Positions 40,270 through 58,604 of a stretch of DNA of 64,000 nt are shown piece after piece. The position numbers were made by a program, and so were the translations under genes. Each line of letters begins with the position of its first letter. Positions within the stretch are counted from its first letter, which is position 1. Below the pieces are notes generated by a model that worked only from the letters and a program-made list of their open reading frames with translations, ran no database searches and was not told the DNA's origin. The DNA comes from Thioalkalivibrio nitratireducens DSM 14787 (GTDB taxonomy: Bacteria > Pseudomonadota > Gammaproteobacteria > Ectothiorhodospirales > Ectothiorhodospiraceae). Where the stretch lies: the NCBI RefSeq assembly GCF_000321415.2, contig NC_019902.2, forward strand, positions 2,542,001-2,606,000. Direction: 5' to 3'.

Positions 40270-40357
40270 CAGACTTCCCCTTCTTCGCCGTTTCGCGAAC
40301 GCAGTCGATCGCGGATCGTGTCAATGAATGACGGCCGAGGGCCGTGACCGTTTCCGT

Positions 40358-40834: not shown

Positions 40835-40844
40835 CGCGGTCCGG

Positions 40845-42617: not shown

Positions 42618-42665
42618 GGCGATTCGACCTCCGATACACGCCGACGCCGCTGCGGGGCGGTCGGA

Positions 42666-42965
42666 TCAGGGAGCAAACCCGGAACGATCGACGAACGTTT
42701 CCGGAATCCGGTGCGTGAAGCTTTGCAGGTGACGCTCGTAGGCGCGTTCGGCCTCGGCGTCGCGCAGTGCCTGCGGATGGGGAGATTGCAGCGCCCCGCT
42801 GGCCTGCAGCTCCAGCCAGCCCCGGGTTTCTAGGCCGGGGGCCGGCGGCGGAATCACGACGGGCGCGCGGGAATCCGCCTCCGCCCACGCTCCCGGGGCC
42901 AGAAACACGCCCGCGCACAGGGCCAGTGCGGCCAGGGCCGTCGGGGTAGCGATTCGGTAGGACAT
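42666..42965 (-). CDS. DUF3613 domain protein, secreted
   Basis: A 99-residue protein with a signal peptide (ALAALALCAGVFLAPGAWA) and a DUF3613-like mature part (ETRGWLELQASGALQSPHPQ, then YERHLQSFTHRIPETF). Proteins of this family are found within tad loci and have no known function. The ATG at 42965 follows AAGAGGTGATCG. It sits between tadD and tadG. Confidence 0.8.
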   Translation of the reverse strand: MSYRIATPTALAALALCAGVFLAPGAWAEADSRAPVVIPPPAPGLETRGWLELQASGALQSPHPQALRDAEAERAYERHLQSFTHRIPETFVDRSGFAP

Positions 42966-43023
42966 CTCGATCACCTCTTCATTGCAGGGCGGGCGGAACG
43001 ACAGGCGGTTCGGCACAGGGACG

Positions 43024-43872
43024 TCAGCGTGCCGGTCGGGACCGCATCCCGGGCGGCATCGCCAGTTCGTCGGGCGACAGTCGACCGTCCGACGACTCCG
43101 GCCGGGAATCGCGCTCGCCGGAATCGCGGCCTTCCACCGGCGCGTCGGCAGACGCATTGCGGTCGGTGCGGCTCGCCGCCGCGGGCAAGCGCTGGCCCCG
43201 AAGCAGCTCGAGTTCGTCGACGCGCAGCTCGACCTCCGCGACCTCGGACCGGCTCAGGCCGTGCCGGGAGATCAGCGCGGTCGCGGCGTCGATCCGCTCT
43301 TCGCTGAAATACAGCAGCAGCAGGTTGTGAATCGGCCTACGGTCGCCGTCGCTCAGGTCCATCGCACTCATCAGCTCGAAATGCGCCTCTTCGGTCTCGC
43401 CCAGGACCATCAGCACGAAGCCGTAGTCGTTGCGGATGCGGGGATCGACCGGCAAATGCTCGCGCGCCAGCTTCAGGTGCTCCGCTGCCGCGCGGTAGTC
43501 GCCGGCGTCGGCACGCAGCAGCCCGAGGCCATGGTGGGCATGCCCGCTGGAACACCGGGCGAGCGATCGCTGGAACTCCTGTTCGGCCTCTTCGTCCCGC
43601 CCGATCCGCCGGAGGATCTGCGCCCGCTTCAGCGCGACCTCCGGCAGTTCGGCCGGCATCGTGTCCAGGCGCGCGAGCGCCGCATACTGGCGGCCGTCGC
43701 CGACCAACTGGTCGACCACGTTCAGGGTCAGCTTCTGATCCTGGTCGAGTTCGGAGGCACAGGCCTCGCGATCCGCGCGCTCGGACTTCCCGAGTCGGTC
43801 CCCGACAGTGGCACAGCCCGACGCCAGCAACGGCACCAGAAGCCACCACGCGAGTCGAAAACGTTCAGCCAT
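43024..43872 (-). CDS. tadD: TadD-like tetratricopeptide lipoprotein
   Basis: A 282-residue lipoprotein with signal peptide ending in ASGC, followed by tetratricopeptide repeats (AHHGLGLLRADAGDYRAAAE, VDPRIRNDYGFVLMVLGETE). TadD proteins act as pilotins/assembly factors for the Tad secretin. The C terminus is a long Arg/Ser/Pro tail. It overlaps tadC by 8 bp. Confidence 0.88.
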   Translation of the reverse strand: MAERFRLAWWLLVPLLASGCATVGDRLGKSERADREACASELDQDQKLTLNVVDQLVGDGRQYAALARLDTMPAELPEVALKRAQILRRIGRDEEAEQEFQRSLARCSSGHAHHGLGLLRADAGDYRAAAEHLKLAREHLPVDPRIRNDYGFVLMVLGETEEAHFELMSAMDLSDGDRRPIHNLLLLYFSEERIDAATALISRHGLSRSEVAEVELRVDELELLRGQRLPAAASRTDRNASADAPVEGRDSGERDSRPESSDGRLSPDELAMPPGMRSRPAR

Positions 43873-44797
43873 CGCCCACCCCCATCAAGCCGCGTCCGAG
43901 GGCCATCAACCCGGGCGCCGCGAGAAACGCCAGCAGCGCCGGAAACAGGAAAACCATCATCACCACACTCATTTTCGCCGCCATCTTGCTGATTTTCTCC
44001 TGCGACCGCGTTTCCTGCCGGTCCAGGATCAGGTCGCTCAGCTTCTTCAGTGGCCCGCGCACCCCGCCCCCCTGCTGCACGAACTGGCGCAGGATCGGGG
44101 CGGCATCCTCGATCTCGGGCACCTGGAGCGCGTGCGACATCTCGTCGAGCGCCTCGGCGAGTTCCTGCCCGGCCTCGACCCTTTGCAGCACCAGCTCGAG
44201 TTCCTGCGCCGTGTCCGGCAGCAGCGTTCGGGCCTCGGTCGCAATCACCCGCAGCGCATGTTCCAGCGACAGCCCCGCTTCCAGCAGCAGGCGCAGCAAC
44301 TGCACGAACAACCCTGCCTCGTGCCCGATCCGGGCCTGGCGCCGTGCAGCCAGCACCCCCAGCACGCGCTTGGGCAGCAGCACTGCGAGAATGGTCACCA
44401 TAGCCAACCCGGCCAGCGGCCGCGCTTCCAGCTGGCCGGATGCCGAGAGCCACAGGAACCCGAGCAGCCCGACCGCGACCGGCAACACGTTCGCAACCGT
44501 CACGAAGACTCTGCGGTGCACCGGGCGCGGATACCCGGCCTGCGCCAGCAAGCGGCTGAGTTCGGCCGGGTCGAACGCCGGCGCCCGCTTGGATACGGCC
44601 GGGCGCATCCCGGTCGCCAGGCTACCCAACCGTGCCAATCCCTGGGCCGCCCCGCCCTGCCCTCGTACGCCGCCGATGCGTCGGCCGATCAGCTCGTCCT
44701 CGTGCACGCGCCGCACCAGTCCCCAGCCGAGCAGCCCGAGCGCGAACGCGACCAGTGCCAGCGACACCAGGGCCAACCACCATGCATCGACGTCCAC
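43865..44797 (-). CDS. tadC: TadC inner-membrane platform protein (GspF-like)
   Basis: A 310-residue integral membrane protein of the type II secretion F family. The F domain (FVQLLRLLLEAGLSLEHALR, ALDEMSHALQVPEIEDAAPI) and three to four membrane helices match TadC. With TadB it forms the membrane platform for the TadA motor. Gene order and 15-bp spacing to tadB are typical. Confidence 0.93.
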   Translation of the reverse strand: MDVDAWWLALVSLALVAFALGLLGWGLVRRVHEDELIGRRIGGVRGQGGAAQGLARLGSLATGMRPAVSKRAPAFDPAELSRLLAQAGYPRPVHRRVFVTVANVLPVAVGLLGFLWLSASGQLEARPLAGLAMVTILAVLLPKRVLGVLAARRQARIGHEAGLFVQLLRLLLEAGLSLEHALRVIATEARTLLPDTAQELELVLQRVEAGQELAEALDEMSHALQVPEIEDAAPILRQFVQQGGGVRGPLKKLSDLILDRQETRSQEKISKMAAKMSVVMMVFLFPALLAFLAAPGLMALGRGLMGVGDG

Positions 44798-44812
44798 GAT
44801 TCGCCTCCTGCG

Positions 44813-45700
44813 TCAAACGCTCTTGAGCATACGCCAGAGCAGAAATATGCCGAGCACCTGCCAGGCCGCGGCCCCGAACAGCACGATGCGCCCGGTCGGA
44901 TCGTCGAGCATCCATGCGTAGTAATCGGGATTCATCGCCACCATATACCCCGCGATCGCGATCGGGACCACGGCCAGCACGACCGCGCTCACGCGGGTCT
45001 CGCCGGTCAGCGCCCGCAGCTGGCGCCGGCTGCGGTCGCGCTGGCGCAGCACCGCGACAATGTTTTCGAACAATTCGGAGGCGCTGCCGCCGAACCGCTG
45101 GTTCACCTGCACGCCCAATGCGAGCAGCTGCAGCTCGCGGACGCGGTGCACCTGCGCGGTGGCCATCATCGCTTCGGTCATGCTGCCGCCGAGGTCGCCG
45201 GCGCGCAGCACGCGTTCCATCACGCCGCGCAAAGGCTCGCGAGACGACTCGACCGCGCTGCGCAGCGCGCCATCGATGCTGCGTCCGACGCGCAGGCCGC
45301 GGATCATGTGTTCCAGAAAGCCCGGCAACTGCTCGACGATCCGCGCGACCCGCCTGCGGTACTGCCACTGCAGCGCCCCGGCCACCAGGGCCGACACGGC
45401 GCCGACCCCCAGCAGAAAACCCAGCCAGCCGAGGTACAGCGAGGCGATCAGCCCCGCGGCGGCGGCGCCGAAGGCCAGCAGCAGCACGACCCCCGGACTC
45501 GCGTCGATCCCGGCGCGCTCGAAGTAGCGGCTGAGACGCCGCGGATTCGGAACGGTCTCGTGGGTCCGCAGCGCCAGTTCCGATACGCGCCTGGCGATCT
45601 GCTCCTCCTCCGCACGCTCGCGGCTGCGCCCGAGCAGCACCAGACCCACCGCGCCGAAGACCAGCGCGACGGCCAGCAGCATCGCCGCGGCCGGCGTCAT
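44813..45700 (-). CDS. tadB: TadB inner-membrane platform protein (GspF-like)
   Basis: A 295-residue type II secretion F-family membrane protein with N-terminal helix AAAMLLAVALVFGAVGLVLL, a central F domain (LPGFLEHMIRGLRVGRSIDG, FGGSASELFENIVAVLRQRD) and C-terminal helices. Partner of TadC. Confidence 0.93.
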   Translation of the reverse strand: MTPAAAMLLAVALVFGAVGLVLLGRSRERAEEEQIARRVSELALRTHETVPNPRRLSRYFERAGIDASPGVVLLLAFGAAAAGLIASLYLGWLGFLLGVGAVSALVAGALQWQYRRRVARIVEQLPGFLEHMIRGLRVGRSIDGALRSAVESSREPLRGVMERVLRAGDLGGSMTEAMMATAQVHRVRELQLLALGVQVNQRFGGSASELFENIVAVLRQRDRSRRQLRALTGETRVSAVVLAVVPIAIAGYMVAMNPDYYAWMLDDPTGRIVLFGAAAWQVLGIFLLWRMLKSV

Positions 45701-45742
45701 GGCCGCGCCCGCCTGCGGCGACCGCCGCGAACGATCACCGCG

Positions 45743-47020
45743 TCAGTGCATGACATCCGCATCACCGTAGTAGCCTTCCCGCAGCTTCGGAATCGACGGC
45801 CGCGTCGGCGACCGCACGAAACGGTTCTGCGCGCGATCGTAGCTGAACAGCGTGTTGGTCACGTATGCGCCTTCGCGCAGCTCGATCAGCTCGAGCACCT
45901 CGGAAATGCAGCGGCGTCCGCTCGGCAGCCGCACGATGTTGATGACCAGTTCGACCGCCGAGCCGATCATCTGCTTCTGGGTCAGTTCCGGGATGTGCCG
46001 GCCGGACAGGCCGAGCAGCGTCTCCAGCCGCAGCAGCGCCTCGATCGCGCCGTTGGCATGGACGGTGCTCATCGAGCCGTCGTGGCCGGTGTTCATCGCC
46101 TGCATCATGTCCAGCACTTCGTCGCCGCGCGACTCGCCGAGGATGATGCGGTCGGGCCGCATGCGGAGCGCGTTCTTGACCAGGTCCCGGGCGGTGACCT
46201 CGCCGTGCCCCTCGACGTTTGGCGGCCGGGTTTCCATCCGCACCACGTGGCTGTGGCCCAGCTGCAGCTCACCGGTGTCCTCGATCGTGACCACGCGTTC
46301 GGTCGGCCCGATGAAGCCGCTGAGTATGTTCAGCAGGGTCGTCTTGCCGGTGCCGGTGCCGCCGCTGATCAGGATGTTGCAGCGCCGGCGGACCGCAAGC
46401 CGGAAGAAATCCAGCATGGCCTCGTCGGCCGAGTGATAGGCGATCAGGTCGCTGCTGCGCAGCAGGTCGCTGCGGAACTTGCGCACCGAGATGCAGGGGC
46501 CGTCCAGCGCGACCGGCGGGATGACCGCGTTCACCCGGCTGCCGTCGGGCAGGCGCGCATCGACCATCGGGCTGGATTCGTCCAGGCGGCGCCCCAGCGG
46601 CGCCAGGATGCGGTGGATCACGCGGATCACGTGCGCATCGTCGATGAAGCGCAGGTCGGTTTCGGCCAGCCGTCCCTCGCGCTCGACGAAGATGTGCTGG
46701 GCACCGTTCACGAGGATCTCGGTCACGGTCGGATCGACCAGCAACACCTGCAGCGGGCCATAGCCCGTCAGCTCGTCGACCATCTCCTCGGTGAGCCGAT
46801 CGAGATCGTAGCGGGTGACCGCGAGCTGCTGGCTGGCGGCATAGGCCGCTACCTTTTCCTCGACGTACTTGCTGATCGACGATTTCACCCAGTCGCCCAG
46901 ATCGACGCCGTCCTCCTCGATCGCGTCGATCAGGTACCGGTGCAGCTGCAGCTTCAGAGACTGGTAGCTCTCCGACTGCTTCAGCGCGAAACTGTGGGAA
47001 AATCCTCCGAGCCGCATCAT
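45743..47020 (-). CDS. tadA: TadA/CpaF secretion ATPase
   Basis: A 425-residue hexameric ATPase driving Tad pilus assembly (type II/IV secretion ATPase family). Walker A is [16 protein letters not shown]; the Asp box, Walker B ([20 protein letters not shown]) and His box ([13 protein letters not shown]) follow. The N-terminal domain ([20 protein letters not shown]) is complete. It starts 7 bp after tadZ. Confidence 0.97.
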
Positions 47021-47027
47021 CGCACCC

Positions 47028-48218
47028 TCAACGTGATCCGTGGCTCAGCCCGATCAGCCGCGCCAACCCGCCGCGCCGTGCCGACCCGGTCTCGCCCAGC
47101 CGGCCGAGCACCTCCTCGACGGCCGCCGCATAGCGATCGCGGGGGGCGACCTCGAACACGCTGCGACCGAGGTTGGCGGCCCGCAAGCGCACTGCCGGGG
47201 CCGGGGGCAGTGCCGCGAGCAGCGGCAGATCGAAGGATTTCGCGAGAGCCGCCTGGTCGGGCGCCACTTTCGGCTCGTAGCGGTCGATCAGAAACCCCGC
47301 CAGCCGGTCCTGCAACCCCCAGTCCTTGATCAGACGCAGGCGTCTGAAGTTCTGATTGCAGCTCGGCACGCTCTGATCGACCAGCAACAGGATCTGCTCG
47401 GCATGCGACAGCAGCAGTTGCAGAAAGTCCGACGGCGGTACCCCGCTGAGGTTGAGCACGACGTGCGTGAAATGCTGCTTGAGCACCCCCAGGAGGAGGT
47501 AGATCTCGGCCGAGGTGACGTCCTCGATCCCGCCGGCCTCCTCGGGCATCGCGAGCAGCTTCAGCCCCGAGCCATGGGCCGGAAACGCGCTCTCGATCAG
47601 CGTCTGGTCCAGGCGCCGGAGGTTGCGTACCGCGTCCAGGAAGCTGAACGAACTCTCCAGACCGAGCAACTGCAGGCTGTCGCCCGGAGGCAGGCCGAGG
47701 TCGAGCAGCAGCACGCGCGCGCCCGCCACCCGCTGCTGCAGACCCAGCGCCAGGTGCTCGGCGAAAAAGGCGTTGCCCAGATCGGGACGGGCATTGAGCA
47801 CGGCGACGAATCGGCCATGATTGGCTGACACGGACTGGCCGGACGGCAACCGCTGCTGCAGGCGCCGCACCAGGCCCGTGAGCTCGGAGGTTCGCGCACC
47901 CGGGGTCAGGAAGTCCCGCGCCCCGGCACGCATCGCCGCCAGCACCAGGTCGCTGTCCATGCCGTCCCCCACCGCAACGACGCTGAGCATCGGCTTCGCG
48001 ACCAGAAGGCCTTCGATGAACGCGGTCATGCGGGCCGTGTTGGCCGGTTGCAGGCCGACGAACACGACCAGCGCGCCGGTCATGTCGACCAGATCCACCA
48101 CGTCTTCCAGCGGCCGGCCCTCCGCCGAAACGACCTCGCCAACCTGGGCGAGGCCCGCTTTCAGCCACTGCAGTTCGCGGTCACTCTCGAAAACCGCGAT
48201 AAAGTTCTGGCGTTCCAT
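47028..48218 (-). CDS. tadZ: TadZ/CpaE-like localisation protein
   Basis: A 396-residue protein with an N-terminal receiver-like domain (ALVVFVGLQPANTARMTAFI, GARDFLTPGARTSELTGLVR) and a C-terminal MinD/ParA-like ATPase fold (FVAVLNARPDLGNAFFAEHL, LLLDLGLPPGDSLQLLGLES). Walker A is degenerate (FVAVLNARPDLGNAF lacks the usual GKT), as in several TadZ proteins, so it may not hydrolyse ATP. TadZ positions the machine in the cell. The starts 48218 (MERQNF) and 48248 are both possible. Confidence 0.88.
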   Translation of the reverse strand: MERQNFIAVFESDRELQWLKAGLAQVGEVVSAEGRPLEDVVDLVDMTGALVVFVGLQPANTARMTAFIEGLLVAKPMLSVVAVGDGMDSDLVLAAMRAGARDFLTPGARTSELTGLVRRLQQRLPSGQSVSANHGRFVAVLNARPDLGNAFFAEHLALGLQQRVAGARVLLLDLGLPPGDSLQLLGLESSFSFLDAVRNLRRLDQTLIESAFPAHGSGLKLLAMPEEAGGIEDVTSAEIYLLLGVLKQHFTHVVLNLSGVPPSDFLQLLLSHAEQILLLVDQSVPSCNQNFRRLRLIKDWGLQDRLAGFLIDRYEPKVAPDQAALAKSFDLPLLAALPPAPAVRLRAANLGRSVFEVAPRDRYAAAVEEVLGRLGETGSARRGGLARLIGLSHGSR

Positions 48219-48238
48219 CGGTTGCCCACCCTGCGCCA

Positions 48239-49528
48239 TCAGTCCCAAAGCCCCATGCGTCTGCTGAAACTGCCATCCTCGAACAGGAACAGCTCGGCGA
48301 AACTCGGATCGTACTCGTGGAAATGGCGTCCGGGCAGCTCCGGAAGTTCGGCGTCGGCCGCCAGCGGGCGCACCAGCCGGGGGGTCACGATCATCAGCAG
48401 CTCGCGGTCCTCGGCCTCGAACCGTGATGACCGGAAAAAGGCGCCGAGCACGGGCAACGTGCCAAGACCGGGCAGCTTGTCGACGCTGGCGATGGTACTG
48501 GAACTAACCAGGCCGCTGAGAACGAAACTCTCGCCATCGGCCAGTGCCACGGTCGTATCGGTGCGCCGCACCCGCAGCGCCGGCACCGAGGTACCCTCGA
48601 GCCGGATGCCGGCCTGGAAGTCCAGCTCACTCACCTCGGGTGCGACCTTGAGCATGATCCGGTCGCGGTCGACCACGGTCGGCGTCAGCGACAGACGCAC
48701 ACCGAACTCCTTGAACTCGATGGTCACCGAGTCGCCCCTGCCGCTCGGCACCGGGATGGGAAACTCGCCGCCGGCGAGGAAACTCGCCTTCTGGCCACTG
48801 AGCGCCACCAGGCTGGGCTCGGCGAGCGTATAGGCGAAACCGCTGCCCTCGAGCGCGTTCAGCAAGGCGAGGAAATTGCGTCCGCCGCCGCCGTAGAAGA
48901 TGTTGAAACCGGCCTCCGGCGCGGTAATCCCCGGCGAGATGGTCCCGAAAGTGCCTGGACTGAACGTCTGGCCGCCCAGGACCTCGGGCGAACCGACCAG
49001 AAAATTGGACGACGCCCGCCGGCCGAGCAGCGAGATCCCGGCTTCACGCAACTTGTTCCGGCTCACCTCGACCAGCCGGATATCGGTCTGGACCTGCGCC
49101 GGAAGTTCGGCGCGCGCCTCGCGCGGGGGCACGCGTTCGTGCACCGCCACCGCGGCCGGACCGGCGACCATCAGGACCGACTTCACGGGATCCCGCGCGC
49201 AGCGGGTCCAGACCATCAGCGATGTCGTGCCGGCGCCGATACCCGTCAGCAGAAACCCATGGGTTCCGACCATTTGCACGTCGGCGACGTTCGGGTCGCC
49301 CACCGCGACCCGCTCGGCGGGTACCGGCAGCCGCAGGGATTGTTGCGCCCCGACCTGCAGATCCTGCACCCGCGGCAACGCCGGGGCCAGATCCGCGCAG
49401 CCAGCTTGCGCGGCCGCTGCCGCCGGCCACACCAGCGCCAGGGCACCGAGCAGCCCCACCATCCGGAAGATATGCCCGGCCTGGCGCGGCCGGGCGCGGC
49501 GGAATCGGTCGATCGTGTCGGTTCTCAT
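48239..49528 (-). CDS. rcpA: RcpA/CpaC outer-membrane secretin
   Basis: A 429-residue secretin for the Tad/Flp pilus. Signal peptide (LLGALALVWPAAAAAQAG) with a BON/N0-like start (QSLRLPVPAERVAVGDPNVA), then the secretin domain (VQTDIRLVEVSRNKLREAGI, GFAYTLAEPSLVALSGQKAS, LAGGEFPIPVPSGRGDSVTI, EFKEFGVRLSLTPTVVDRD). It forms the outer-membrane ring through which the pilus emerges. Confidence 0.95.
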   Translation of the reverse strand: MRTDTIDRFRRARPRQAGHIFRMVGLLGALALVWPAAAAAQAGCADLAPALPRVQDLQVGAQQSLRLPVPAERVAVGDPNVADVQMVGTHGFLLTGIGAGTTSLMVWTRCARDPVKSVLMVAGPAAVAVHERVPPREARAELPAQVQTDIRLVEVSRNKLREAGISLLGRRASSNFLVGSPEVLGGQTFSPGTFGTISPGITAPEAGFNIFYGGGGRNFLALLNALEGSGFAYTLAEPSLVALSGQKASFLAGGEFPIPVPSGRGDSVTIEFKEFGVRLSLTPTVVDRDRIMLKVAPEVSELDFQAGIRLEGTSVPALRVRRTDTTVALADGESFVLSGLVSSSTIASVDKLPGLGTLPVLGAFFRSSRFEAEDRELLMIVTPRLVRPLAADAELPELPGRHFHEYDPSFAELFLFEDGSFSRRMGLWD

Positions 49529-49552
49529 GCTCGCTCCACCATCGCTGGATGA

Positions 49553-50530
49553 TCAGGGTTGGATCTCGACGCTCTGTGTCCCGCGGTGCAGAATCACGCC
49601 GGGCCGGGGTTCGGGCGCAGGCCGCCGCGCAGGATCCGGCGGCGGCGACACGGCTGGCGGCAGCAACGCGTCGATGGTGGTGAAGCGCAGCGGTTCTTCT
49701 GCAACCGGCCGGGGCATCAGCGTGCCCAGCCCGACGACCGGCGCCGCGGCTTCGTCGACCGGGCCCGGATCCACGTCCACGTCCGCGGCCGCCACCGCCA
49801 GCCGCTCATCGGCGCCGTGCAGCGCCAGCCGCAGCGAGCCGGCGTTCGCGGCGAGCATCACCTTCGGTGCTTCGTCCTCTGGCACCGCGAGCACCGCCGT
49901 GCGGTTGCTGCGCCGCTGGCCGTCGCGCTCGCCGTCGGTGTCCTCGGCGGCACCGTCGGGGGGCAGATCCAGCCTCAGCTCATAGCTAAGCACCCGCAGA
50001 TCCGAGACGACCACCTGGGCCGATTCGCGCGCCGGGCCGGCGCGGGCACCGGTCTCCTTCAGGTAGAGCAGCAGATCGACATGATCGCCCGGCGCGATAT
50101 ATCCGCCCGCACCGACCACGTCGTCGACCGCGACCGCGAGCGCCCGCTCGCCGGGGCGCAGCGTCCGCGCGAGCTGGCTGGCCTTGAAGAACCGGGTGTC
50201 GAGCAGTGGCTCGCCTTCGCGCACGGGCAGCACCAGCAGCTTCCCGATCACCGCGTCGGGTTCGGAAAACGCGTGCGGCGGCCGCACCGACAGGCGTTCG
50301 ACGCGCAGGTCGTCGGGCCCGACGCGCGCGCCCGCCTGCAGATCGCGGGCAGCGAACAATACCTCGACCCGGGCGTCGTCCTCGACCGTCGGTTCCGGCG
50401 GCGGCGCCGGCTCGGCAGGCGGAGCCGCGACCGGCTCGGGCTGGCGCGAGAGCTGGTAACCCGCGATCCCCGCGATCACCGCGGCACCCAGCAGCAGGAT
50501 CGCGACCACCGTCATCAGCCGGCTGTTCAT
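49553..50530 (-). CDS. rcpC: RcpC/CpaB pilus assembly protein
   Basis: A 325-residue protein with one N-terminal transmembrane helix (TVVAILLLGAAVIAGIAGYQ), a Pro-rich segment, and a SAF-like domain (VEVLFAARDLQAGARVGPDD, LRPGERALAVAVDDVVGAGG, YIAPGDHVDLLLYL) characteristic of CpaB. It may bind peptidoglycan or prepare the secretin. First gene of the minus-strand tad operon; the tail is Pro/Arg-rich. Confidence 0.92.
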   Translation of the reverse strand: MNSRLMTVVAILLLGAAVIAGIAGYQLSRQPEPVAAPPAEPAPPPEPTVEDDARVEVLFAARDLQAGARVGPDDLRVERLSVRPPHAFSEPDAVIGKLLVLPVREGEPLLDTRFFKASQLARTLRPGERALAVAVDDVVGAGGYIAPGDHVDLLLYLKETGARAGPARESAQVVVSDLRVLSYELRLDLPPDGAAEDTDGERDGQRRSNRTAVLAVPEDEAPKVMLAANAGSLRLALHGADERLAVAAADVDVDPGPVDEAAAPVVGLGTLMPRPVAEEPLRFTTIDALLPPAVSPPPDPARRPAPEPRPGVILHRGTQSVEIQP

Positions 50531-50958
50531 CGCAGATTGCCTCGATGCAGAGGGCCTCTACCGCACCCAGGGCCGCGCAACGGCGCCGCCGCCGACCCAA
50601 ACCCCGAACCGCCGGCCATAGCATTGGTTAGCTTCACCGATCCCCCCGCTATCATTCGTTTCGGTACCTCTACCGGCTGGTATCAGGCCATGCCCGGCGC
50701 ATCCCGCCGACACCACCTGAACCCGCCGCGGAAGCCAAGCTACTGAGTACACGCACTTCCGGGTGCGGCAATGAGTGTTGCCTGTCCCCACTGCCATCGC
50801 AATAGTTGGAGTGGATTAACCCGATGGGAATATCGTCGAGTTCGTCCGGATTGAGTAATCTGTTCGTGGGGTTGCGGCCTGCAGCTCCGGGGCGTCGCCA
50901 GTGCGGGCTCCAAACTCGAGCGACAACTACAACGGTTGCATACACGGGAGATCCAGTC
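50531..50958. other. 428-bp divergent region between rcpC and flp
   Basis: It should hold the promoters of both tad transcripts. I see no confident sigma-70 pair and no sigma-54 box (TGGC-N7-TTGC). A GGGAGATCC ribosome site precedes flp. No gene is evident; the frame in line with flp is open to 50806, but the extension does not look like protein. Confidence 0.55.
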
Positions 50959-51141
50959 ATGTTCAAGCAAGCGATTATCGAGTTCTTTCGCGACGACGAA
51001 GGCGCCAGCGGTATCGAATACGCGCTGGTCGCCGCGATGGTGGCGCTGGCGATCGTCGCCTTCGTTCCGCAGGTCCGCGACGCCGTCACCGAGATCTTCA
51101 CGTCCATCGCCGATACGCTGTCCGAGTCTGTAGCAGAGTAG
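50959..51141 (+). CDS. flp: Flp type IVb pilin
   Basis: A 60-residue major pilin. A short leader MFKQAIIEFFRDDEGASG is followed by IEYALVAAMVALAIVAF, the Flp motif with Gly at the cut, Glu then Tyr, and a hydrophobic stem. The C-terminal region (DAVTEIFTSIADTLSESVAE) is typical. TadV would process it. It is divergent from the other tad genes and followed by tadV after 100 bp. Confidence 0.96.
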   Translation: MFKQAIIEFFRDDEGASGIEYALVAAMVALAIVAFVPQVRDAVTEIFTSIADTLSESVAE

Positions 51142-51241
51142 GCGGACTCGCGCCAGCCCGACACGGAACCCGGAGGGTCCCCGCCTTGATCCCCGGGCTC
51201 CCGGTGCCACGGAACGGCCCGCCGGCCGCGCGACGCAAGGC

Positions 51242-51745
51242 ATGATCGCGGTCGCGGCAGTCGCCTGGGCCGCGCTTTGCGGCTGGCTCGATCTGCATAC
51301 ACGGCGCCTTCCCAACGCACTCACGCTCGGCGCTGCCGGCGTGGGGGCGTTGGTTCTGTTGCTGCGTGGCGAGACGCTGCTGCATCAGGCATCGCCTGGT
51401 TCTGCATTGCTCGCGTTCGGCCTTGCGCTCGTCTTGACGCTGCCCGGCTACGCGCTCGGGCGGCTCGGGGCCGGCGACGTGAAGCTGCTCGCGGCGATGG
51501 CGCTACTCGGTGGTCTCACCGCGCTGCTCTGGGCCTTTGTCGTCGGCGCATTCGCGGCCGTGATCGTCTTCGCCGGCTGGTCGCTGTTCTGGCGCATCCA
51601 GTTCATGCCGTCGGTCTACCGCTGGGTATCCCGGGCCGGAGGGCCGGTCCCCGACCCGCGCACGGTGCGCATTCCTTTCGCCCCGGGGCTCGCGCTCGGC
51701 TTCGCGCTGTCGCTGCCGCTCGCGTCCCGGCTGGCCGCAGGCTAG
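51242..51745 (+). CDS. tadV: Prepilin peptidase TadV/CpaA
   Basis: A 167-residue inner-membrane aspartic protease that trims Flp and the pseudopilins. The two catalytic Asp residues are in CGWLDLHTRRLPN (D17) and GRLGAGDVKLL (about D78). Four to five membrane helices. Its stop codon overlaps that of the convergent C39 peptidase gene as CTAG, with no terminator between them. Confidence 0.94.
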   Translation: MIAVAAVAWAALCGWLDLHTRRLPNALTLGAAGVGALVLLLRGETLLHQASPGSALLAFGLALVLTLPGYALGRLGAGDVKLLAAMALLGGLTALLWAFVVGAFAAVIVFAGWSLFWRIQFMPSVYRWVSRAGGPVPDPRTVRIPFAPGLALGFALSLPLASRLAAG

Positions 51746-52320
51746 TCGTCCATGTCCGGCACGCCATCGCGCTGCGGCGATTGCCGCGCCGGAAACCAGT
51801 CCTCGTCCGCGACCGGCGGCGCCCGCAGCGCCTCTTCGCCCAGCGGCAGCCAGTCGGCCTCCGGCGCCGCGACGTAGAGCGCCCGTCCCTCCGCCCCGCG
51901 CGGCGCCCAGCGGCGGAGGAACTGCGACCGCGCAAGCCGCAGGTTGCCGCGCGCGGGATCCGCCAGCCAGACCCGCGCCGGGCCGATACCGCGCAGCACC
52001 GCGAAATGGCCGACGGCGGAAGCCCCCGGCAGGTGCAGCAGCGCCGGCCTTCCCGCGCGGCCGAGGCCGTCCCAGTCCAGCGCATAGCCGAACGCCCGCA
52101 GCCCGTACTGCGCGCAAACCTGCTGCAACTGGTCGAGACCGACCACCTTCCGCGTACCCAGGCGTTCGAGCACGTCGGCTTCGGTCACCGGCAGCGCGTG
52201 GACCTCGGCGAGCAGCGTGGCCAGCGCAGCCGCGCCGCAGGATTCCGGCCAGGACTGGCGCTGGACCCGTCGGAAATCCGCCGGCGGCCGCAGCAGCCGG
52301 TTCAGTACCGACCGCGGCAT
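51742..52320 (-). CDS. Stand-alone C39 double-glycine peptidase
   Basis: A 192-residue cysteine protease of the C39 family, which cuts after Gly-Gly in bacteriocin and peptide leaders. The catalytic set is visible: Q22 and C28 in RQSWPESCGAAALATLL, H105 in SAVGHFAVL and D121 in VWLADPARGNLRL. There is no signal peptide, no membrane helix and no fused ABC domain, so it should be a soluble cytosolic enzyme. In most peptide exporters this domain is fused to the ABC transporter. Last gene of an operon that starts with tolC; its start overlaps the preceding stop as TGATG. A peptide with a Gly-Gly leader lies in the same island (57773). Confidence 0.9.
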   Translation of the reverse strand: MPRSVLNRLLRPPADFRRVQRQSWPESCGAAALATLLAEVHALPVTEADVLERLGTRKVVGLDQLQQVCAQYGLRAFGYALDWDGLGRAGRPALLHLPGASAVGHFAVLRGIGPARVWLADPARGNLRLARSQFLRRWAPRGAEGRALYVAAPEADWLPLGEEALRAPPVADEDWFPARQSPQRDGVPDMDD

Positions 52321-52850
52321 CAGAACGCGCCGGCGATGCGGTTGTACGCCAGCGCCACCGCGACCAATCCGCCCAGCATGAGCAGCCAGAGCACCACCGC
52401 CCGCAGCGGCGGCTGCTGCGCGACGTCGAGCGGGATCAACAGCAGCAGCGCGAACATCGCGCCCGCGGCGACCAGCCCCAGCACCGGAACCGAACCCAGT
52501 GCCAGCGGAAGCATCGCGAGAATCACCGCGACGTGCAGACGCTGCCAGCCGCCGTGCCACGGGGTCAGTCCGCGCAGCAATAGCCAGAACACGCTCGGCA
52601 CCAGCAGCGCGACCAGCACTGCGGTGCGCACGGCCTCGAGCAGGCGCCCCGCGGCATCGTCGCGACCGACCAGCAGGCCGACCAGCACGTTGACCAGCAC
52701 GATGCCGAACAACAGCAGCCACCCGGCCAGGAGTTGCCCCAGGCCGTCGTCGAGGCTGCGCAGCGTGCTGCGCGGGCGTGTAACGAAAGCGAGCAACAGA
52801 CGCCAGGCCTCCCCGGCGGACGCCGAGGGCCGGAACGCGGTTTCAGTCAT
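52320..52850 (-). CDS. Yip1-like multi-spanning membrane protein
   Basis: A 176-residue protein with about five hydrophobic spans, for example QLLAGWLLLFGIVLVNVLVG, AVLVALLVPSVFWLLLRGL, VAVILAMLPLALGSVPVLGL and AVVLWLLMLGGLVAVALAYN. The arrangement and the N-terminal segment TRPRSTLRSLDDGLGQ resemble Yip1-domain proteins. YknW of Bacillus is such a protein and assists the YknXYZ MacAB-like transporter; the same set of neighbours is found here. The role, probably transporter assembly, is inferred. It overlaps the permease gene by 8 bp and the peptidase gene by one base. Confidence 0.72.
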   Translation of the reverse strand: MTETAFRPSASAGEAWRLLLAFVTRPRSTLRSLDDGLGQLLAGWLLLFGIVLVNVLVGLLVGRDDAAGRLLEAVRTAVLVALLVPSVFWLLLRGLTPWHGGWQRLHVAVILAMLPLALGSVPVLGLVAAGAMFALLLLIPLDVAQQPPLRAVVLWLLMLGGLVAVALAYNRIAGAF

Positions 52851-54069
52851 AACGAAGGGCCTCCATAGGGGACAGCGACGCCGCCTTGTGCGCCGGGTAA
52901 TAACCGAAGAAGCCGCCGATCGCGGCCGAGAACAGCAGCACGAGCAGCACCACGCCGGACTCCATCTGGCCCTGCCAGGGCAGCATCTGGTTGAGCAGCA
53001 CGATGCTGCCGGCGGCGAACAGCATGCCCAGAAAACCGCCGAGCAGCGTCAGCAATGCAGCCTCGCCGATGAACTGGATCCGGATCTGGCCGGCATTGGC
53101 GCCGACCGCGCGGCGGATACCGATCTCGCCGACCCGCTCGCTGACCGATGCCAGCATCACGTTCATCACGCCGATCCCGCCGACCACCAGGCTGACCGCG
53201 GCGATGCTGGCGAGCGTCCAGGTCATCGCGGCGGTCAGGCGGCCGGCGAGGCTGGCGATCTGCCCCATGTCGGTGACTGTGTAGATCGGGCCGCCGTGCG
53301 ACAGCGCGGTGTTCTTGGTCAGCAGGTAGAGTTCGATCGCCAGCGCGACCTCGTCCTTCGCCTCGCGCGAGACGGGCTGGACCATCAGGTACTGGACATG
53401 GCGCACGCCCGCGATCGACCGCTGCACGAAGCTGACCGGAGCGAACAGATCGCTGTCCTGACCCTGGCCGAGCGCGGCGTCGTCGCGGCGCGACAGCACG
53501 CCGACCACCTCGACCGACTGCCCCTGGAACCGCACCGTCTGGCCGACCGCCGGACGGTTGCCGAACAGCCGCTCCGCGAGTTCGGCTCCGAGCACCGCGA
53601 CCGGGGCACCGGCACGCTCGTCGGCAGCGGTCAACGGCCTGCCGATGTCGACCCGCAGGTCGCGCAGCCCGAGGTAGTCGGGCGTAGTACCGACCAGGCT
53701 TGCCACCGCCCGCCGGTCTCCGTAGCGGACCTCGCCCTGCAGCTGCGAGACCGGCGCGACGCGCAGGACCCCGGGAATCGAATTGCGCAGCCGCTCGGCA
53801 TCGCGCACGGTCAGGCTCTCGGCGATCAGCGGGTTGAAAAAGCTCGTCGGATCCTGCACGTTTCCCGGGGTCACGATCAGCAGGTCGGAGCCGAGCACGG
53901 CCACCTGCCCCTCGATGTAGGCACGGGCGCCGAAGCCGATCGCGAGCAGCGTGACGACCGCCCACACGCCGACCGCGATCCCCAGGATCGTCAGGCCGCT
54001 GCGGGTCTTGTGCTCGCGCAGCAACGCCATGGCGTCAGTCAGCACCGCCGGGATCCCGGATCCGCTCAT
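52843..54069 (-). CDS. MacB-like ABC transporter permease
   Basis: A 408-residue FtsX/MacB-fold permease. The N-terminal helix LTILGIAVGVWAVVTLLAIG is followed by a periplasmic MacB core domain of about 220 residues (LGSDLLIVTPGNVQDPTSFF, ERLFGNRPAVGQTVRFQGQS). Three C-terminal helices include WTLASIAAVSLVVGGIGVMN and VMLASVSERVGEIGIRRAVG. It has no ATPase of its own; that is encoded by the overlapping next gene. MacB-type permeases act on substrates already in the periplasm or on peptides, not as classical channels. The ATG overlaps the ATPase stop (TGATG). Confidence 0.92.
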   Translation of the reverse strand: MSGSGIPAVLTDAMALLREHKTRSGLTILGIAVGVWAVVTLLAIGFGARAYIEGQVAVLGSDLLIVTPGNVQDPTSFFNPLIAESLTVRDAERLRNSIPGVLRVAPVSQLQGEVRYGDRRAVASLVGTTPDYLGLRDLRVDIGRPLTAADERAGAPVAVLGAELAERLFGNRPAVGQTVRFQGQSVEVVGVLSRRDDAALGQGQDSDLFAPVSFVQRSIAGVRHVQYLMVQPVSREAKDEVALAIELYLLTKNTALSHGGPIYTVTDMGQIASLAGRLTAAMTWTLASIAAVSLVVGGIGVMNVMLASVSERVGEIGIRRAVGANAGQIRIQFIGEAALLTLLGGFLGMLFAAGSIVLLNQMLPWQGQMESGVVLLVLLFSAAIGGFFGYYPAHKAASLSPMEALRYD

Positions 54070-54833
54070 CACAATGCCCTCAGCATCTGACCGCCGGCCC
54101 TGTCCGCACCGGCGCTCGCCACCGGCCAGAGCTTCCCGGCGTCGAGACGGTAACAGCGTTCCGCCCGGGCCGCGAGGTCGTGGTCATGCGTCACCAGGAT
54201 CACGGCCATCTGCGGCTCGCGCCTGCGTAGATCCCGGACGATCGACAAAACCTCCGCGCCGGTTTCCGGATCCAGATTGCCGGTGGGTTCGTCCAGCAGC
54301 AGGATCCGGGGCCGCGCCGCGAGCGCACGGGCGATCGCGACACGCTGCTGCTGCCCGCCCGAGAGCTGGCGCGGCCGATGCCCGGCATGCGCGGCAAGCC
54401 CGACCTGGGCGAGCGCTGCCTCCGCCCGGGTGCGCCGCTCGGCACGGCTGAGGTCGGCACGGTAATCCAGCGGCATCTCCACGTTGCGCAATGCGGTCAT
54501 GCGGTCGACCAGATGAAATCGCTGGAAAACGAAGCCCAGCGTGCGTCCCCGAAAGATGGACAGCGCCTCGTCGTCGAGCGTCTGAACCGAGCGGCCGCCA
54601 ACGATGACTTCGCCCCTGTCCGGCCGCTCGAGACACCCCAGCACGTGCAATAGCGTCGATTTTCCCGACCCGGAAGGCCCAATGATCGCGCTGTAATCGC
54701 CCGGCTGCACCGCCAGCGAAACCCCGCGCAGGGGTTCCACGCGGTGCCCGCCGACGGAGAAACCCTTGACGACATCGACCAGTTCGAGCACCGGACCCGG
54801 CGCGCGGTCACTCCCGGTAGAGGACGAGGACAT
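54069..54833 (-). CDS. ABC transporter ATPase (LolD/MacB type)
   Basis: A 254-residue ATPase: Walker [19 protein letters not shown]-loop [20 protein letters not shown], signature [17 protein letters not shown], Walker [14 protein letters not shown]-loop [10 protein letters not shown]. The [14 protein letters not shown] text is characteristic of the LolD/MacB group. The start at 54833 is selected because GGGAG lies at useful distance; starts at 54842 and 54878 are in frame. It overlaps the HlyD-like gene by 26 bp. Confidence 0.93.
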
Positions 54834-56016
54834 CGTCACCATGCTCCCACGCGTCGACCAGCGCGACCTGGGATTCATCCTGTACCCCGAGGCGCACCCC
54901 CACCGGATGCAATTCGCCTCGAGGTCCGGAGGTCCAGATCACGGCCTTGCCCGATGCGCGCAAGCGTTCGAGCTCGCCTTCGTGCCCCCGCAGCACCGCG
55001 GGATCGGGACGGTACAGCAGCGCTTTCAGCGGAATCACCGGCAACCGGCCCGAACGGCCCGTTTCGATCCGGGCCTGTGCGGACATCCCCGGGAACAGCT
55101 CGCGATCGGCGTTATCCACATTGACCACCACGTCGTACACGGTGATGCCGCCTTGCCGCTGCCCTCCGGCACGCACGCTGCGCACTTGGCCAGGAAACTC
55201 CCTGCCCGGAAAAGCCTCGACGGTAAATCGGACCGACTGCCCCGAAGCCACGCGCCCGATATCGGCCTCGTTCACTTCCAGCCGCAGCTCGAGAGCTTCG
55301 AGGCTCGGGGCCACCTCGAACAGCGGCTGGCCGCCGGCGGGCGACACCGGCTGCCCCGGTTCCGCGAACAGACTCAGCAGCACGCCGTCAATCGGGCTGG
55401 CGACCACGCTGCGCTGCAGGTTCTCGGCGGCGCGGTCGCGCCGGATTCGTGCCTGCTCGACGTGCGCCTCGGCAATCTCCAGCGCTGTCTCCAGTTCCTC
55501 CTGGTTCGCGACGGCCTGGTCGCGTTCGTCCCGCGGGATCAACCGTTCCCGGAGCAGGCGCTCCGAGCGCTCGCGTTCCTGCCGCGCGCGCTGCGCCCGG
55601 CCGCGCGCCGCCGCCGCATCTCCTTGAGCCGCCAGCCAGGCCGACTGGGCCTCCTCGAATGCCAGGCGTAGATCGGTGTCCTCGATCCGGACCAGCCAGG
55701 CGCCGGACCGAACGCGGTCATCGCCGGCCGCGACGCCGTCGGCCACTTCGGCCACGACCCCGGTAACCTGAGGATGCACCGCGATCTGACCCCGGGCGCG
55801 CAGGACTCCCTGCGCGCGAACCTCCAGCAGGAGATCGCTCTCGACTACCGGGGTTCCGGCTACGCCGTCGGGCAGCCGCGTACCGCTGGCCGGCAGCAGA
55901 ACCAGCACAAGCAGCACGACCCCGAGTCCGGCAGCGATGGCCGCCGCCCGCAGAGAAAATCCGCCGGTCCCCCAGAAGTTCAGGAGCCGGCGGTACCACG
56001 ATCCCGTCTGCAGCAT
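54808..56016 (-). CDS. HlyD/MacA-like periplasmic adaptor protein
   Basis: A 402-residue membrane fusion protein. One N-terminal membrane helix (AAIAAGLGVVLLVLVLLPAS) and a biotinyl-lipoyl half motif (GQIAVHPQVTGVVAEVADGV) lead into a coiled-coil hairpin of about 100 residues rich in Ala/Glu/Arg. The second lipoyl half follows (VVASPIDGVLLSLFAEPGQP), then a beta-barrel domain (GQSVRFTVEAFPGREFPGQV) and a C-terminal domain. It would link the permease to the TolC-like channel. The start at 56016 (MLQTGSWYRRLLNFWG) is based on the helix and on overlap with tolC further upstream. Confidence 0.9.
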   Translation of the reverse strand: MLQTGSWYRRLLNFWGTGGFSLRAAAIAAGLGVVLLVLVLLPASGTRLPDGVAGTPVVESDLLLEVRAQGVLRARGQIAVHPQVTGVVAEVADGVAAGDDRVRSGAWLVRIEDTDLRLAFEEAQSAWLAAQGDAAAARGRAQRARQERERSERLLRERLIPRDERDQAVANQEELETALEIAEAHVEQARIRRDRAAENLQRSVVASPIDGVLLSLFAEPGQPVSPAGGQPLFEVAPSLEALELRLEVNEADIGRVASGQSVRFTVEAFPGREFPGQVRSVRAGGQRQGGITVYDVVVNVDNADRELFPGMSAQARIETGRSGRLPVIPLKALLYRPDPAVLRGHEGELERLRASGKAVIWTSGPRGELHPVGVRLGVQDESQVALVDAWEHGDDVLVLYRE

Positions 56017-56032
56017 CGCAACTTCCCTGCGG

Positions 56033-57448
56033 TCAGAACGATCCCGCCGGACCATCATCATCCAAACCGCCGATCGCCCAATACAGGCGCACGATTGCCT
56101 GCTGGCGGTCAAACTCAGCTCCGACGGAACGTGCCGACGCCTCGCGGTACGCGGTCTCGGCCAGCGAGAGATCGTAGAAGGTTCGGATGCCTTCCCGGTA
56201 TCCGCTGCGCGCGAGCTGCAGATCAAGTTCAGCAGCGGCAAGGGCCTTGCGAGTGAGTTCGATCCGCTCCGACGCTTCCTGCAGGTCCTGCTGGGCATCG
56301 CGGATGTCGGTGACCACCTGCTGGCGCAGCGCCTGCGAGCGTTCCGATTCGGCGATCACTCGGGCACGCGCCTCGGAGACCCTGGCGCTCCGGAGCCCGC
56401 CATCGAAGACATCCCATCGCAGCTGCATGCCTACGGTGTAGTTGGGGGCGGTTCCGCCACTGGCAAACTTCTGGACGCTGTAATTGCCCGTAAGCTGCAG
56501 CGAGGGGTAGCGATCGGCCAGCAGTCGCCGCACCCGCTCGCGCTGCGCCGCGACCGCATGCGCCTGCCCCGCCAGCCGCGGATGCTGGTTCAGCGTGTCC
56601 TCATCCGGAAGCCGCTCGGCGAGGTCGGCCGGATCGATCATCCGGCTGTGCCCGGCGATGTCGAACTCGAATTCGCCAGGTTCGAGACCCATCGCCTGCC
56701 GCAAGCGCAGCATGTTGCCCTGAAGGTCGTTGCGCAGGCTCGTGACCTCCACCTCGGCGCGCGCAACATCGGCGTCGGCGCGCGCGATGTCGCCGGCACT
56801 CACACGCCCTGCCCGTTCCAGCCGCCGCGCCATTCGGGCAGCCTCGCGCAGGCGCGTCAACGACTCCTCCTGCACGTCCAGGAGCGCGCGCAGGTGCAGG
56901 ATCTCGAAATAATGCTGCGCGACCGTCAGCACCGTATCGACCTGCACGCTGTCGAGGGACGAATCCAGGGCCTGCCGGTCGCTCCGGGCCGCCGCGAGCC
57001 CGTGCTGGCGGCGGCCGAAATCGAGCAGCAGGTATTCGACGCTGACGGCTCCCACGTACCGCGTGAACCCGGAGAGGTCGCGCTCGGCCTCAGCCACCGG
57101 AACCTGCCCGAGCGACGGGTCGAGCACCGAAAAGTCCAGGAAGGGCCGAGCCTCGACCGGCGACGCCTGGTTCAGCGTCGTCCGCTCGCCGGAGGTGGTG
57201 ATCGAGACCGAAGGCCAGTAGGCCGATTCCTGCGCGCGCACCCGCGCATCGGCCGCTTCCAGATCCCACTTCGCTTCCCGAACCCCCGGGTTGTTTTCCA
57301 GTGCCCGAAGCACAACCTGTTCCAGATCGAGCACGGGCAGCCTGTCAGCCCCCGCAGAAGGCGCCGCCAGCGCCAGCATCAGCCAGGAAACGAGCACCAG
57401 GCCACAGGCCCCCACGGCCTGTTTGCCTCTTCGCGAATTCGGCACCAT
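56033..57448 (-). CDS. TolC-family outer-membrane channel
   Basis: A 471-residue outer-membrane efflux protein. A signal peptide (VLVSWLMLALAAPSAGA) precedes two OEP repeats with the typical helical pairs (EQVVLRALENNPGVREAKWD, ALDSSLDSVQVDTVLTVAQH; LQLTGNYSVQKFASGGTAPN, MQLRWDVFDGGLRSARVSEA). It starts the minus-strand operon and lies 16 bp upstream of the adaptor. Its own promoter should be in the 324-bp divergent region shared with the peptide gene. Confidence 0.92.
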   Translation of the reverse strand: MVPNSRRGKQAVGACGLVLVSWLMLALAAPSAGADRLPVLDLEQVVLRALENNPGVREAKWDLEAADARVRAQESAYWPSVSITTSGERTTLNQASPVEARPFLDFSVLDPSLGQVPVAEAERDLSGFTRYVGAVSVEYLLLDFGRRQHGLAAARSDRQALDSSLDSVQVDTVLTVAQHYFEILHLRALLDVQEESLTRLREAARMARRLERAGRVSAGDIARADADVARAEVEVTSLRNDLQGNMLRLRQAMGLEPGEFEFDIAGHSRMIDPADLAERLPDEDTLNQHPRLAGQAHAVAAQRERVRRLLADRYPSLQLTGNYSVQKFASGGTAPNYTVGMQLRWDVFDGGLRSARVSEARARVIAESERSQALRQQVVTDIRDAQQDLQEASERIELTRKALAAAELDLQLARSGYREGIRTFYDLSLAETAYREASARSVGAEFDRQQAIVRLYWAIGGLDDDGPAGSF

Positions 57449-57634
57449 ACCAGTTCACCCCTGCAAGTATTGTTGCTTGCACATCGTCAGCGTGCGTTTC
57501 GGCTCGGCTCGCGCAGGCGAACCAAGATGCAGCGAAACAGCGGTTGGATGGAATCGACGCGTCAAGGGTCCGCCGACATCCCGCATGACCAGTCCGCACC
57601 ATGCGCTGAAGCATCGCAGGGATACTGCCCTTTT

Positions 57635-57660
57635 GTATATCGTACCTAGGTGCTATATAC
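57635..57660. promoter_or_regulatory. 26-bp palindrome, candidate operator of the peptide island
   Basis: GTATATCGTACCTAGGTG then CTATATAC reads GTATAT-NNN-ACCTAGGT-NNN-ATATAC, so 20 of 26 positions are symmetric around a perfect 8-bp core. It lies 20 bp upstream of the peptide -35 box, between the divergent tolC and peptide genes. Symmetry and position suggest a dimeric regulator; none is encoded in the island. Confidence 0.6.
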
Positions 57661-57680
57661 AAGTTACTTCCCACATATGG

Positions 57681-57710
57681 TTGACGGCTGAACAAAGCCC
57701 TTCCTAATAT
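57681..57710 (+). promoter_or_regulatory. Sigma-70 promoter of the double-glycine peptide gene
   Basis: TTGACG at 57681-57686 and TAATAT at 57705-57710, spaced 18 bp, close to the consensus TTGACA and TATAAT. The stretch is AT-rich in an otherwise GC-rich genome. It lies about 60 bp upstream of the peptide start codon. Confidence 0.65.
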
Positions 57711-57772
57711 TAATGGTGTCAGCTGGGCTGGCGTGGACAAACACCCAAAAATTCGATAGGAGCGCTACTCTC

Positions 57773-57970
57773 ATGATTCGTCAGTTGGATAGCCATGAAA
57801 TGAAACAAGCCCGCGGCGGCGCCGACGCCACCGTCAACCTGGGCGCCCTTGGTTCCATCACCGTAGACGCCGCCATGCCGGCGTTGGCCGCGATCGCCGC
57901 AGGCGTGAACGGCCTGCTGATCGGTGTCGTCAACGCACTCGGCGGCCTGCTCGGCCCGCTGCTGGCCTGA
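57773..57970 (+). CDS. 65-residue peptide with double-glycine leader (bacteriocin-like)
   Basis: The first 16 residues, MIRQLDSHEMKQARGG, fit the double-glycine leader pattern: Leu at -12, Asp at -11, Glu at -8, Met at -7, Ala at -4, Gly-Gly at -2/-1. The mature part would be 49 residues: ADATVNLGALGSITVDAAMP followed by ALAAIAAGVNGLLIGVVNAL and GGLLGPLLA. It is almost free of charge (two Asp, no Arg/Lys/Cys), hydrophobic and Gly/Ala/Leu-rich, like membrane-active peptides. GGAG lies 10 bases before the ATG. A promoter precedes it and a terminator follows. The C39 peptidase and transporter genes are divergent from it, which indicates processing and export. Whether it is toxin, signal or surface material is unknown. 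Confidence 0.85.
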   Translation: MIRQLDSHEMKQARGGADATVNLGALGSITVDAAMPALAAIAAGVNGLLIGVVNALGGLLGPLLA

Positions 57971-57977
57971 CCCACCC

Positions 57978-58058
57978 CAGCCGATCCGGCTACGGCCGGA
58001 TCGGCTGCCTCGGCAGCCTCTCTGTCGGCATCCGCCGAGAGGAAGGCTGCTGTTTTTT
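57978..58058 (+). terminator. Tandem hairpin terminator after the peptide gene
   Basis: AGCCGATCCGGC and GCCGGATCGGCT around TACG form a perfect 12-bp stem (57978-58005). A second hairpin (GCAGCCTCTC with GAGAGGAAGGCTGC) ends in TTTTTTT at 58052-58058, giving a Rho-independent terminator. Confidence 0.85.
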
Positions 58059-58188
58059 TCCGCCGCACGCCCGCAATTGCATGCTTCCCGCCCCGGGGTG
58101 ACCGGCGCAGTATGTCTTCCCTGGTGACATTCCGCCCCTGAGTGTGATCCGAATCACCCCCCCCGCTACCTAAAGGCACCAACACAAA

Positions 58189-58223
58189 CGGGGCCCGGAT
58201 GCCAACAACACATCCGGGCCCCG
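58189..58223 (-). terminator. Hairpin terminator after the second peptide gene
   Basis: CGGGGCCCGGAT and ATCCGGGCCCCG enclose an 11-base loop (perfect 12-bp stem). On the minus strand it is followed by TTTGTGTT, so it can end the leftward peptide transcript about 40 bp after its stop. Confidence 0.75.
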
Positions 58224-58263
58224 CGCCGAACTGCACCGGCAGTTCGGCTGGGCTACGGCGAAA

Positions 58264-58371
58264 TTACAGGAGACCGCCCAGCAGCCCGCCCCCCAGAAGG
58301 TTCCCAACAAGCGAAAGAACCGGCTGGAGCAGACCCAGAATCGGCCCTAAAAGGCCACCAAGAAGATCCAT
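58264..58371 (-). CDS. 35-residue hydrophobic peptide (LLGGLLG-type), no leader
   Basis: A small gene reading MDLLGGLLGPILGLLQPV, then LSLVGNLLGGGLLGGLL. One charged residue (Asp2). GGGAG lies 8 bases before the ATG at 58371; an ATG two codons earlier (58377) is in frame. It shares LGGLLGP(L/I)L with the C-terminal end of the peptide at 57773. There is no Gly-Gly leader of the usual length, although residues 5-6 are GG. A leftward AT-rich stretch with TATACA (58416-58411) could be its -10, and a strong hairpin follows the stop. No function known; perhaps a membrane-active peptide, an immunity peptide or a partner of the first peptide. Confidence 0.6.
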   Translation of the reverse strand: MDLLGGLLGPILGLLQPVLSLVGNLLGGGLLGGLL

Positions 58372-58604
58372 AATCATAACTCCCGAAACGTGATGTGATG
58401 TGATGTACCATGTATACAGCGAGCAATAAGGAGCAACAGCAAAGCGCACCAACAACCCGCGATCAGGCAATTACCGGTAACGCCTTACGGGTATTCAAGG
58501 TAATCGCCCAAGCCACCAGACTCAATCATCCCTTGGCACTACTCGCTTCGAACTGCCTGCGCGCCGAACGCCACGAACCGGCTACGATCGGCTAGAATTC
58601 GGCC

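What the first reader, a model, noticed from the sequence alone, without database searches (positions are those of the whole stretch)
58264..58377. Leaderless hydrophobic peptide sharing LGGLLGP(L/I)L with the precursor
The two peptides are convergent neighbours, each with its own hairpin terminator. Peptide 1 ends ...NALGGLLGPLLA and peptide 2 begins MDLLGGLLGPILGLL. The shared segment suggests common origin or direct interaction, for example an immunity peptide, a two-peptide toxin, or a co-assembling partner. Genes of this size are usually missed by annotation.
Basis: partly seen in the sequence, partly recalled or inferred. Interest (0 to 1): 0.65.

Follow-up and report, generated by a model that had tools for sequence, protein, structure and literature searches.

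The report
Exporter-linked leaderless hydrophobic small peptide
The 35-residue, very hydrophobic peptide is a real, conserved gene that always travels with its neighbour peptide and a TolC-MacAB-type export pump in a transferable cassette, which suggests a secreted peptide pair of a kind known from Gram-positive bacteria but apparently undescribed in Gram-negatives.

Summary
The small gene is real. Its conserved start is MDLL..., 35 aa at 58264-58371 on the minus strand; the reported end adds two upstream codons. Same-length orthologues, 74-83% identical, lie in two other Thioalkalivibrio genomes, again convergent with peptide 1 and followed by a hairpin, and the frame is under purifying selection. 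The argument from the shared LGGLLGP segment fails. It is absent in the relatives, and p2 matches unrelated hydrophobic stretches of this window equally well. Instead, p2 is linked to an exporter: TolC-MacA-ABC-MacB-small membrane protein(-C39 peptidase). A distant gammaproteobacterium has a p2-like peptide, a second leaderless peptide and the same operon, on one strand. The four peptide-linked MacB permeases form one clade (100/100); 20 other MacB neighbourhoods lack such peptides. The cassette sits at the edge of a 27-kb island absent from a sister genome. Best explanation: an exported, membrane-active peptide pair with a dedicated efflux/immunity pump. That activity is inferred, not shown.

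The parts
58264..58371 (-). peptide 2 (p2), 35 aa, MDLLGGLLGPILGLLQPVLSLVGNLLGGGLLGGLL, leaderless
   Evidence: conserved start, length and frame in two congeners, pN/pS 0.26-0.39
58188..58224 (-). hairpin (15 bp stem) after p2, terminator-like
   Evidence: different-sequence hairpins with U6 tail at the same place in both relatives
57773..57970 (+). peptide 1 (p1), 65 aa precursor with GG-type leader MIRQLDSHEMKQARGG
   Evidence: homologues in the same two congeners
57979..58055 (+). two strong hairpins after p1, the second followed by U7
56033..57448 (-). TolC-family outer-membrane channel
54808..56030 (-). MacA/HlyD-type periplasmic adaptor (the longest ORF runs to 56298; true start probably near 56030)
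54069..54878 (-). ABC ATPase (MacB-type, separate NBD)
52843..54072 (-). MacB/FtsX-type permease
52320..52850 (-). small multi-pass membrane protein, no Pfam family; homologue at the same place in G130
51742..52320 (-). stand-alone C39 peptidase (Cys, His, Asp motifs present); homologues at this place in G012 and G026, none beside the G130 operon
31317..58590 (.). 27-kb block absent in sister genome G011: regulators, tad/Flp pilus locus, exporter, p1, p2

Best explanation
p2 is a leaderless, anionic, glycine-rich amphipathic helical peptide. With p1, which is made as a GG-leader precursor and trimmed by the stand-alone C39 peptidase, it forms a secreted membrane-active pair, most likely bacteriocin-like. 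p2 would partition into the inner membrane without a signal, and the TolC-MacA-ABC-MacB conduit with its small membrane partner would pull it from the outer leaflet or periplasm and expel it; this both exports the peptide and protects the producer, as MacB-type pumps do for AS-48, EntDD14 and SDP in Gram-positives. Shown: gene reality, purifying selection, pairing with p1, same-strand linkage with one specific exporter clade in two bacterial orders, and presence in an island missing from a sister genome. Inferred: export, cleavage of p1, assembly of the pair, membrane activity and target.
For: p1 and p2 profiles hit the same 3 of 47 genomes. A close MacB orthologue occurs in exactly those 3 within the order. 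Outside the order, the only comparably close MacB among 369 class genomes (58% identity against at most 39%) is in G130, whose operon is preceded by a p2-like 39-aa peptide (76% aligned identity) and a 41-aa second peptide. MacB clade support is 100/100. 0 of 20 other MacB neighbourhoods have such peptides. p2 lies on the operon's strand in all four. pN/pS is 0.26-0.39; pA has 5 synonymous and 0 replacement changes between G130 and G253. p2 is 74-83% identical among congeners while MacA and TolC are only 41-48% between this genome and the other two. AlphaFold2 gives p2 a single helix 4-33 (pLDDT 87) and p1 a C-terminal helix 31-64 (low confidence). MacB-type pumps handle bacteriocins and toxin peptides (PMC5985334; PMC9865063).
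Against: No activity, transcript or secretion data. p2 is anionic (-1 to -4) without Trp, unlike typical leaderless bacteriocins. MacB expels from the periplasm, so how p2 crosses the inner membrane is unexplained. No separate immunity gene was found. The cassette lies beside a pilus/biofilm gene set, which also fits a matrix or surfactant role. Only three independent lineages are known (G012 and G026 are close), and they were drawn from a sample of genomes.
Confidence: 0.45

Rival explanations
1. p1 and p2 are secreted surface-active or matrix peptides (working like phenol-soluble modulins) that aid attachment or biofilm structure rather than kill competitors.
For: In the three Thioalkalivibrio genomes the cassette adjoins a tad/Flp pilus locus, with regulators and an EAL-domain protein in the same island in this genome. 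A BapA-type adhesin secretion system is found in the same three genomes of the order and adjoins p2 in two. The peptides are anionic amphipathic helices.
Against: In G130 the operon is not beside a tad locus in the 18 kb read. In this genome the adhesin system is unlinked to p2.
Confidence: 0.25
2. p2 is a small inner-membrane subunit or regulator of the pump, as AcrZ is for AcrB, not its cargo.
For: Single hydrophobic helix, no leader, same strand as the operon, more conserved than TolC and MacA.
Against: G130 has two such peptides; p2 has its own terminator and is separated from TolC by p1; it has no positive residues to set membrane orientation.
Confidence: 0.15
3. p2 is an immunity peptide against p1.
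For: Always adjacent to p1, same three genomes.
Against: G130 and G253 have p2-like peptides but no GG-leader p1 beside them; p2 has its own convergent transcription unit, whereas immunity genes are usually co-transcribed with their toxin (general knowledge).
Confidence: 0.08
4. The ORF is not translated; the similarity is low-complexity convergence.
For: Only L/G-rich sequence; 35 codons; no sigma-70-like promoter found on its strand.
Against: Exact length and start conserved, other five frames broken in at least one genome, 14-19 synonymous against 11-14 replacement differences over half as many sites, terminators in all three.
Confidence: 0.03

Closest known systems
Leaderless two-peptide bacteriocins with a MacB-type pump (enterocin DD14, DdGHIJ; PMC9865063)
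   Same: Leaderless small peptides linked to adaptor + ATPase + MacB-type permease + small membrane protein
   Different: Here Gram-negative with TolC, peptides anionic and without Trp; no DdE/DdF-like pair was seen beside the operon; p1 has a GG leader in Thioalkalivibrio
YknWXYZ (sporulation-delaying peptide protection) and AS-48EFGH (PMC5985334)
   Same: MacA-like adaptor, separate NBD, MacB-type permease, co-encoded small membrane protein
   Different: TolC added; the peptides lie next to the pump; the small membrane protein matches no Pfam family
MacAB-TolC exporting enterotoxin STII (PMC5985334)
   Same: Tripartite MacB-type conduit that expels a small peptide from the periplasm
   Different: STII reaches the periplasm by Sec with a cleaved signal; p2 has no signal. 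E. coli MacB is fused to its NBD, here the NBD is separate
Staphylococcal phenol-soluble modulins (own knowledge)
   Same: Leaderless, short, amphipathic, often anionic helices exported by an ABC transporter
   Different: No sequence-family match; other exporter type; other phylum

Membership tests
leaderless bacteriocin | no leader; translation product is the mature peptide | tested here: met
   conserved start MD and length 35 in three genomes
leaderless bacteriocin | cationic, usually Trp-containing | tested here: not met
   charge -1 to -4, no Trp
leaderless bacteriocin | antibacterial activity | not testable with these tools
   needs peptide assay
two-peptide (class IIb) bacteriocin | two adjacent genes, both with GG leaders | tested here: not met
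   p1 has the leader, p2 none
two-peptide (class IIb) bacteriocin | GxxxG helix-packing motifs | tested here: inconclusive
   small-residue lag-4 pairs 5 in p2, shuffle P 0.09; 7 in the G130 peptide pA, P 0.02
MacAB-TolC-type tripartite exporter | TolC, HlyD/MacA adaptor, ABC ATPase, MacB_PCD+FtsX permease | tested here: met
   Pfam and NCBIfam
YknWXYZ / AS-48EFGH four-component pump | co-encoded small membrane protein of the YknW (Yip1) or AS-48E kind | tested here: inconclusive
   multi-pass protein present at the same place in G000 and G130, best Pfam hit DUF998 E 0.034
phenol-soluble modulin | match to a PSM or other curated family | tested here: not met
   no Pfam or NCBIfam hit for p2

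The most novel reading that the evidence does not exclude
A mobile Gram-negative cassette for a two-peptide secreted system in which one peptide is leaderless and the other GG-processed, served by a dedicated TolC-MacAB-type pump with an added membrane protein that extracts the hydrophobic peptide from the inner membrane.
Probability: 0.35. Interest if true: 0.75.

Novelty: new variant of a known kind. Interest (0 to 1): 0.55.

Why it matters
If true, leaderless membrane peptides with MacB-type pumps are not confined to Gram-positives, and it gives a natural peptide substrate for a MacAB-TolC-like pump, a family whose substrate recognition is little understood (PMC5985334). Genes of 35-41 codons such as these are easily missed by annotation; the linked MacB clade is a ready marker for finding more.

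Tried and rejected
Shared LGGLLGP segment as homology: rejected. Link to the BapA-type adhesin secretion system next to p2 in G012 and G026: the system exists in this genome but is unlinked and has no p2 beside it. Similarity to the TadG C-terminus: not above shuffles (P 0.10). Weak profile hits in G002, G020 and G125: inside unrelated frames. Viral hit: chance match inside a phage tape-measure-like protein. Plasmids and phages: no match to p2; plasmids: none to p1 or pA. Genome-contig scan with p2 found nothing and with p1 found only ALJ24 and ALJT. A first MacB tree used wrongly oriented sequences and is discarded in favour. A first shuffle script timed out.

Full report
What is there. On the minus strand at 58264-58371 lies a 35-codon frame, MDLLGGLLGPILGLLQPVLSLVGNLLGGGLLGGLL. 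The finding's end, 58377, adds the codons MI. GGGAG is 8 nt before the inner ATG and only 2 nt before the outer one, and both relatives start at MD, so 58371 is the likely start. A 15-bp hairpin follows at 58224-58188. Its U-tract is weak here, but the relatives carry hairpins of other sequence with U6. Peptide 1, 57773-57970 +, converges on it and ends in strong hairpins with U7.

It is a gene. p2 occurs in Thioalkalivibrio sp. ALJ24 (G012) and ALJT (G026), names, at 74-83% identity with identical length. pN/pS is 0.26-0.39 and every other frame is interrupted in at least one genome. AlphaFold2 gives one helix, residues 4-33, mean pLDDT 87.

Pairing with peptide 1. Profiles of p1 and of p2 hit the same three of 47 genomes of the order, always convergent. 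The shared LGGLLGP(L/I)L is however private to this genome: p1 of the relatives ends GVLGGVL and their p2 reads GLLGTV. In this genome the 8-of-9 match beats 1500 shuffles, but in the relatives it is ordinary (61-76% of shuffles), the codons differ (3/9 third positions alike), and p2 matches a kinase membrane segment and the TadG tail of the same window as well as it matches p1.

The exporter link. Left of p1, on p2's strand, lie TolC, a MacA-type adaptor, an ABC ATPase, a MacB permease, a small membrane protein and a stand-alone C39 peptidase. In the order, a close MacB orthologue (64%) is found only in the three p1/p2 genomes. Among 369 genomes of the class the next closest is G130 (58%; the rest at most 39%). 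Independently, the p2 profile picked out G130 and its relative G253: a 39-aa peptide, MLGLGDLLGGLLDTVLGLLGPVLGLVQGLLGSLLGGLLG, with a perfect ribosome-binding site, then a 41-aa peptide, MISASLNLEAILGSVISTVTGLVGHVLDLVGGLLGSVMTLV. In G130 these are followed by TolC, MacA, ABC, MacB and the membrane protein, all on one strand, with homology for every component; the G253 contig ends inside the operon. In G130/G253 the first peptide shows five synonymous and no replacement changes. Both peptides match p2 better than all 1500 shuffles. The four MacB proteins form one clade with 100/100 support among 36. A scan of 20 other MacB neighbourhoods found no p2-like ORF; two of those stretches were under 5 kb (L067, L077), so their upstream side was not fully covered.

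Transfer. ClpB is 84-85% identical between this genome and G012/G026, but MacA and TolC only 41-48%, no closer than to G130. The sister genome G011 (ClpB 99%) lacks p1, p2 and the pump, and joins window 31316 to 58591 within 49 bp. So p2 sits at the right edge of a 27-kb block gained here or lost there, which also holds a tad/Flp pilus locus and regulators. In G012 and G026 the cassette is again next to tad genes.

How it may work. MacB pumps do not carry cargo across the inner membrane but expel it from the periplasm by mechanotransmission; related four-component pumps protect against or export SDP, AS-48 and EntDD14 (PMC5985334, PMC9865063). The anatomy here, hydrophobic leaderless helix plus partner plus such a pump plus a small membrane protein, is the same arrangement with TolC added. 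I therefore favour an exported membrane-active pair with self-protection by the pump (0.45), ahead of a PSM-like matrix role (0.25) and a pump subunit (0.15). Export, p1 cleavage and activity are inferred.

Limits. Co-occurrence rests on three lineages (G012 and G026 are close). The genome of G130 is unnamed in the tool. The small membrane protein could not be assigned to a family. Short L/G-rich peptides can converge, so the p2-pA kinship leans on position, strand and exporter as much as on sequence. Papers were searched only in an open-access library; no description of this cassette was found.

Noticed in passing
window 31317-58590: 27-kb block absent from sister genome G011 with a clean junction; no tRNA in the window and no long direct repeats at its ends.
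   Followed up: partly
window 31525-33735 (-): Large putative secreted protein with a long 12-bp tandem repeat encoding GDGN-type repeats.
   Followed up: no
G000:C1 about 2026000-2034342 (L082), L008, L009: BapA-type adhesin with its own type I secretion system and an OmpA/BamE-like protein; its HlyD is found in the same three genomes of the order as p1/p2, unlinked in G000, adjacent to p2 in G012 and G026.
   Followed up: partly
window 1052-1304, 16692-16861, 23776-23914: Dispersed repeats of about 120-175 bp that also occur in tandem in G011 (L109).
   Followed up: no
window 40845-42617 (-): TadG-like protein with an L/G-rich hydrophobic C-terminus (LGALLGGLLAPLLQTLGDTLLDPLLRLLG) reminiscent of p2, not above shuffles.
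   Followed up: partly
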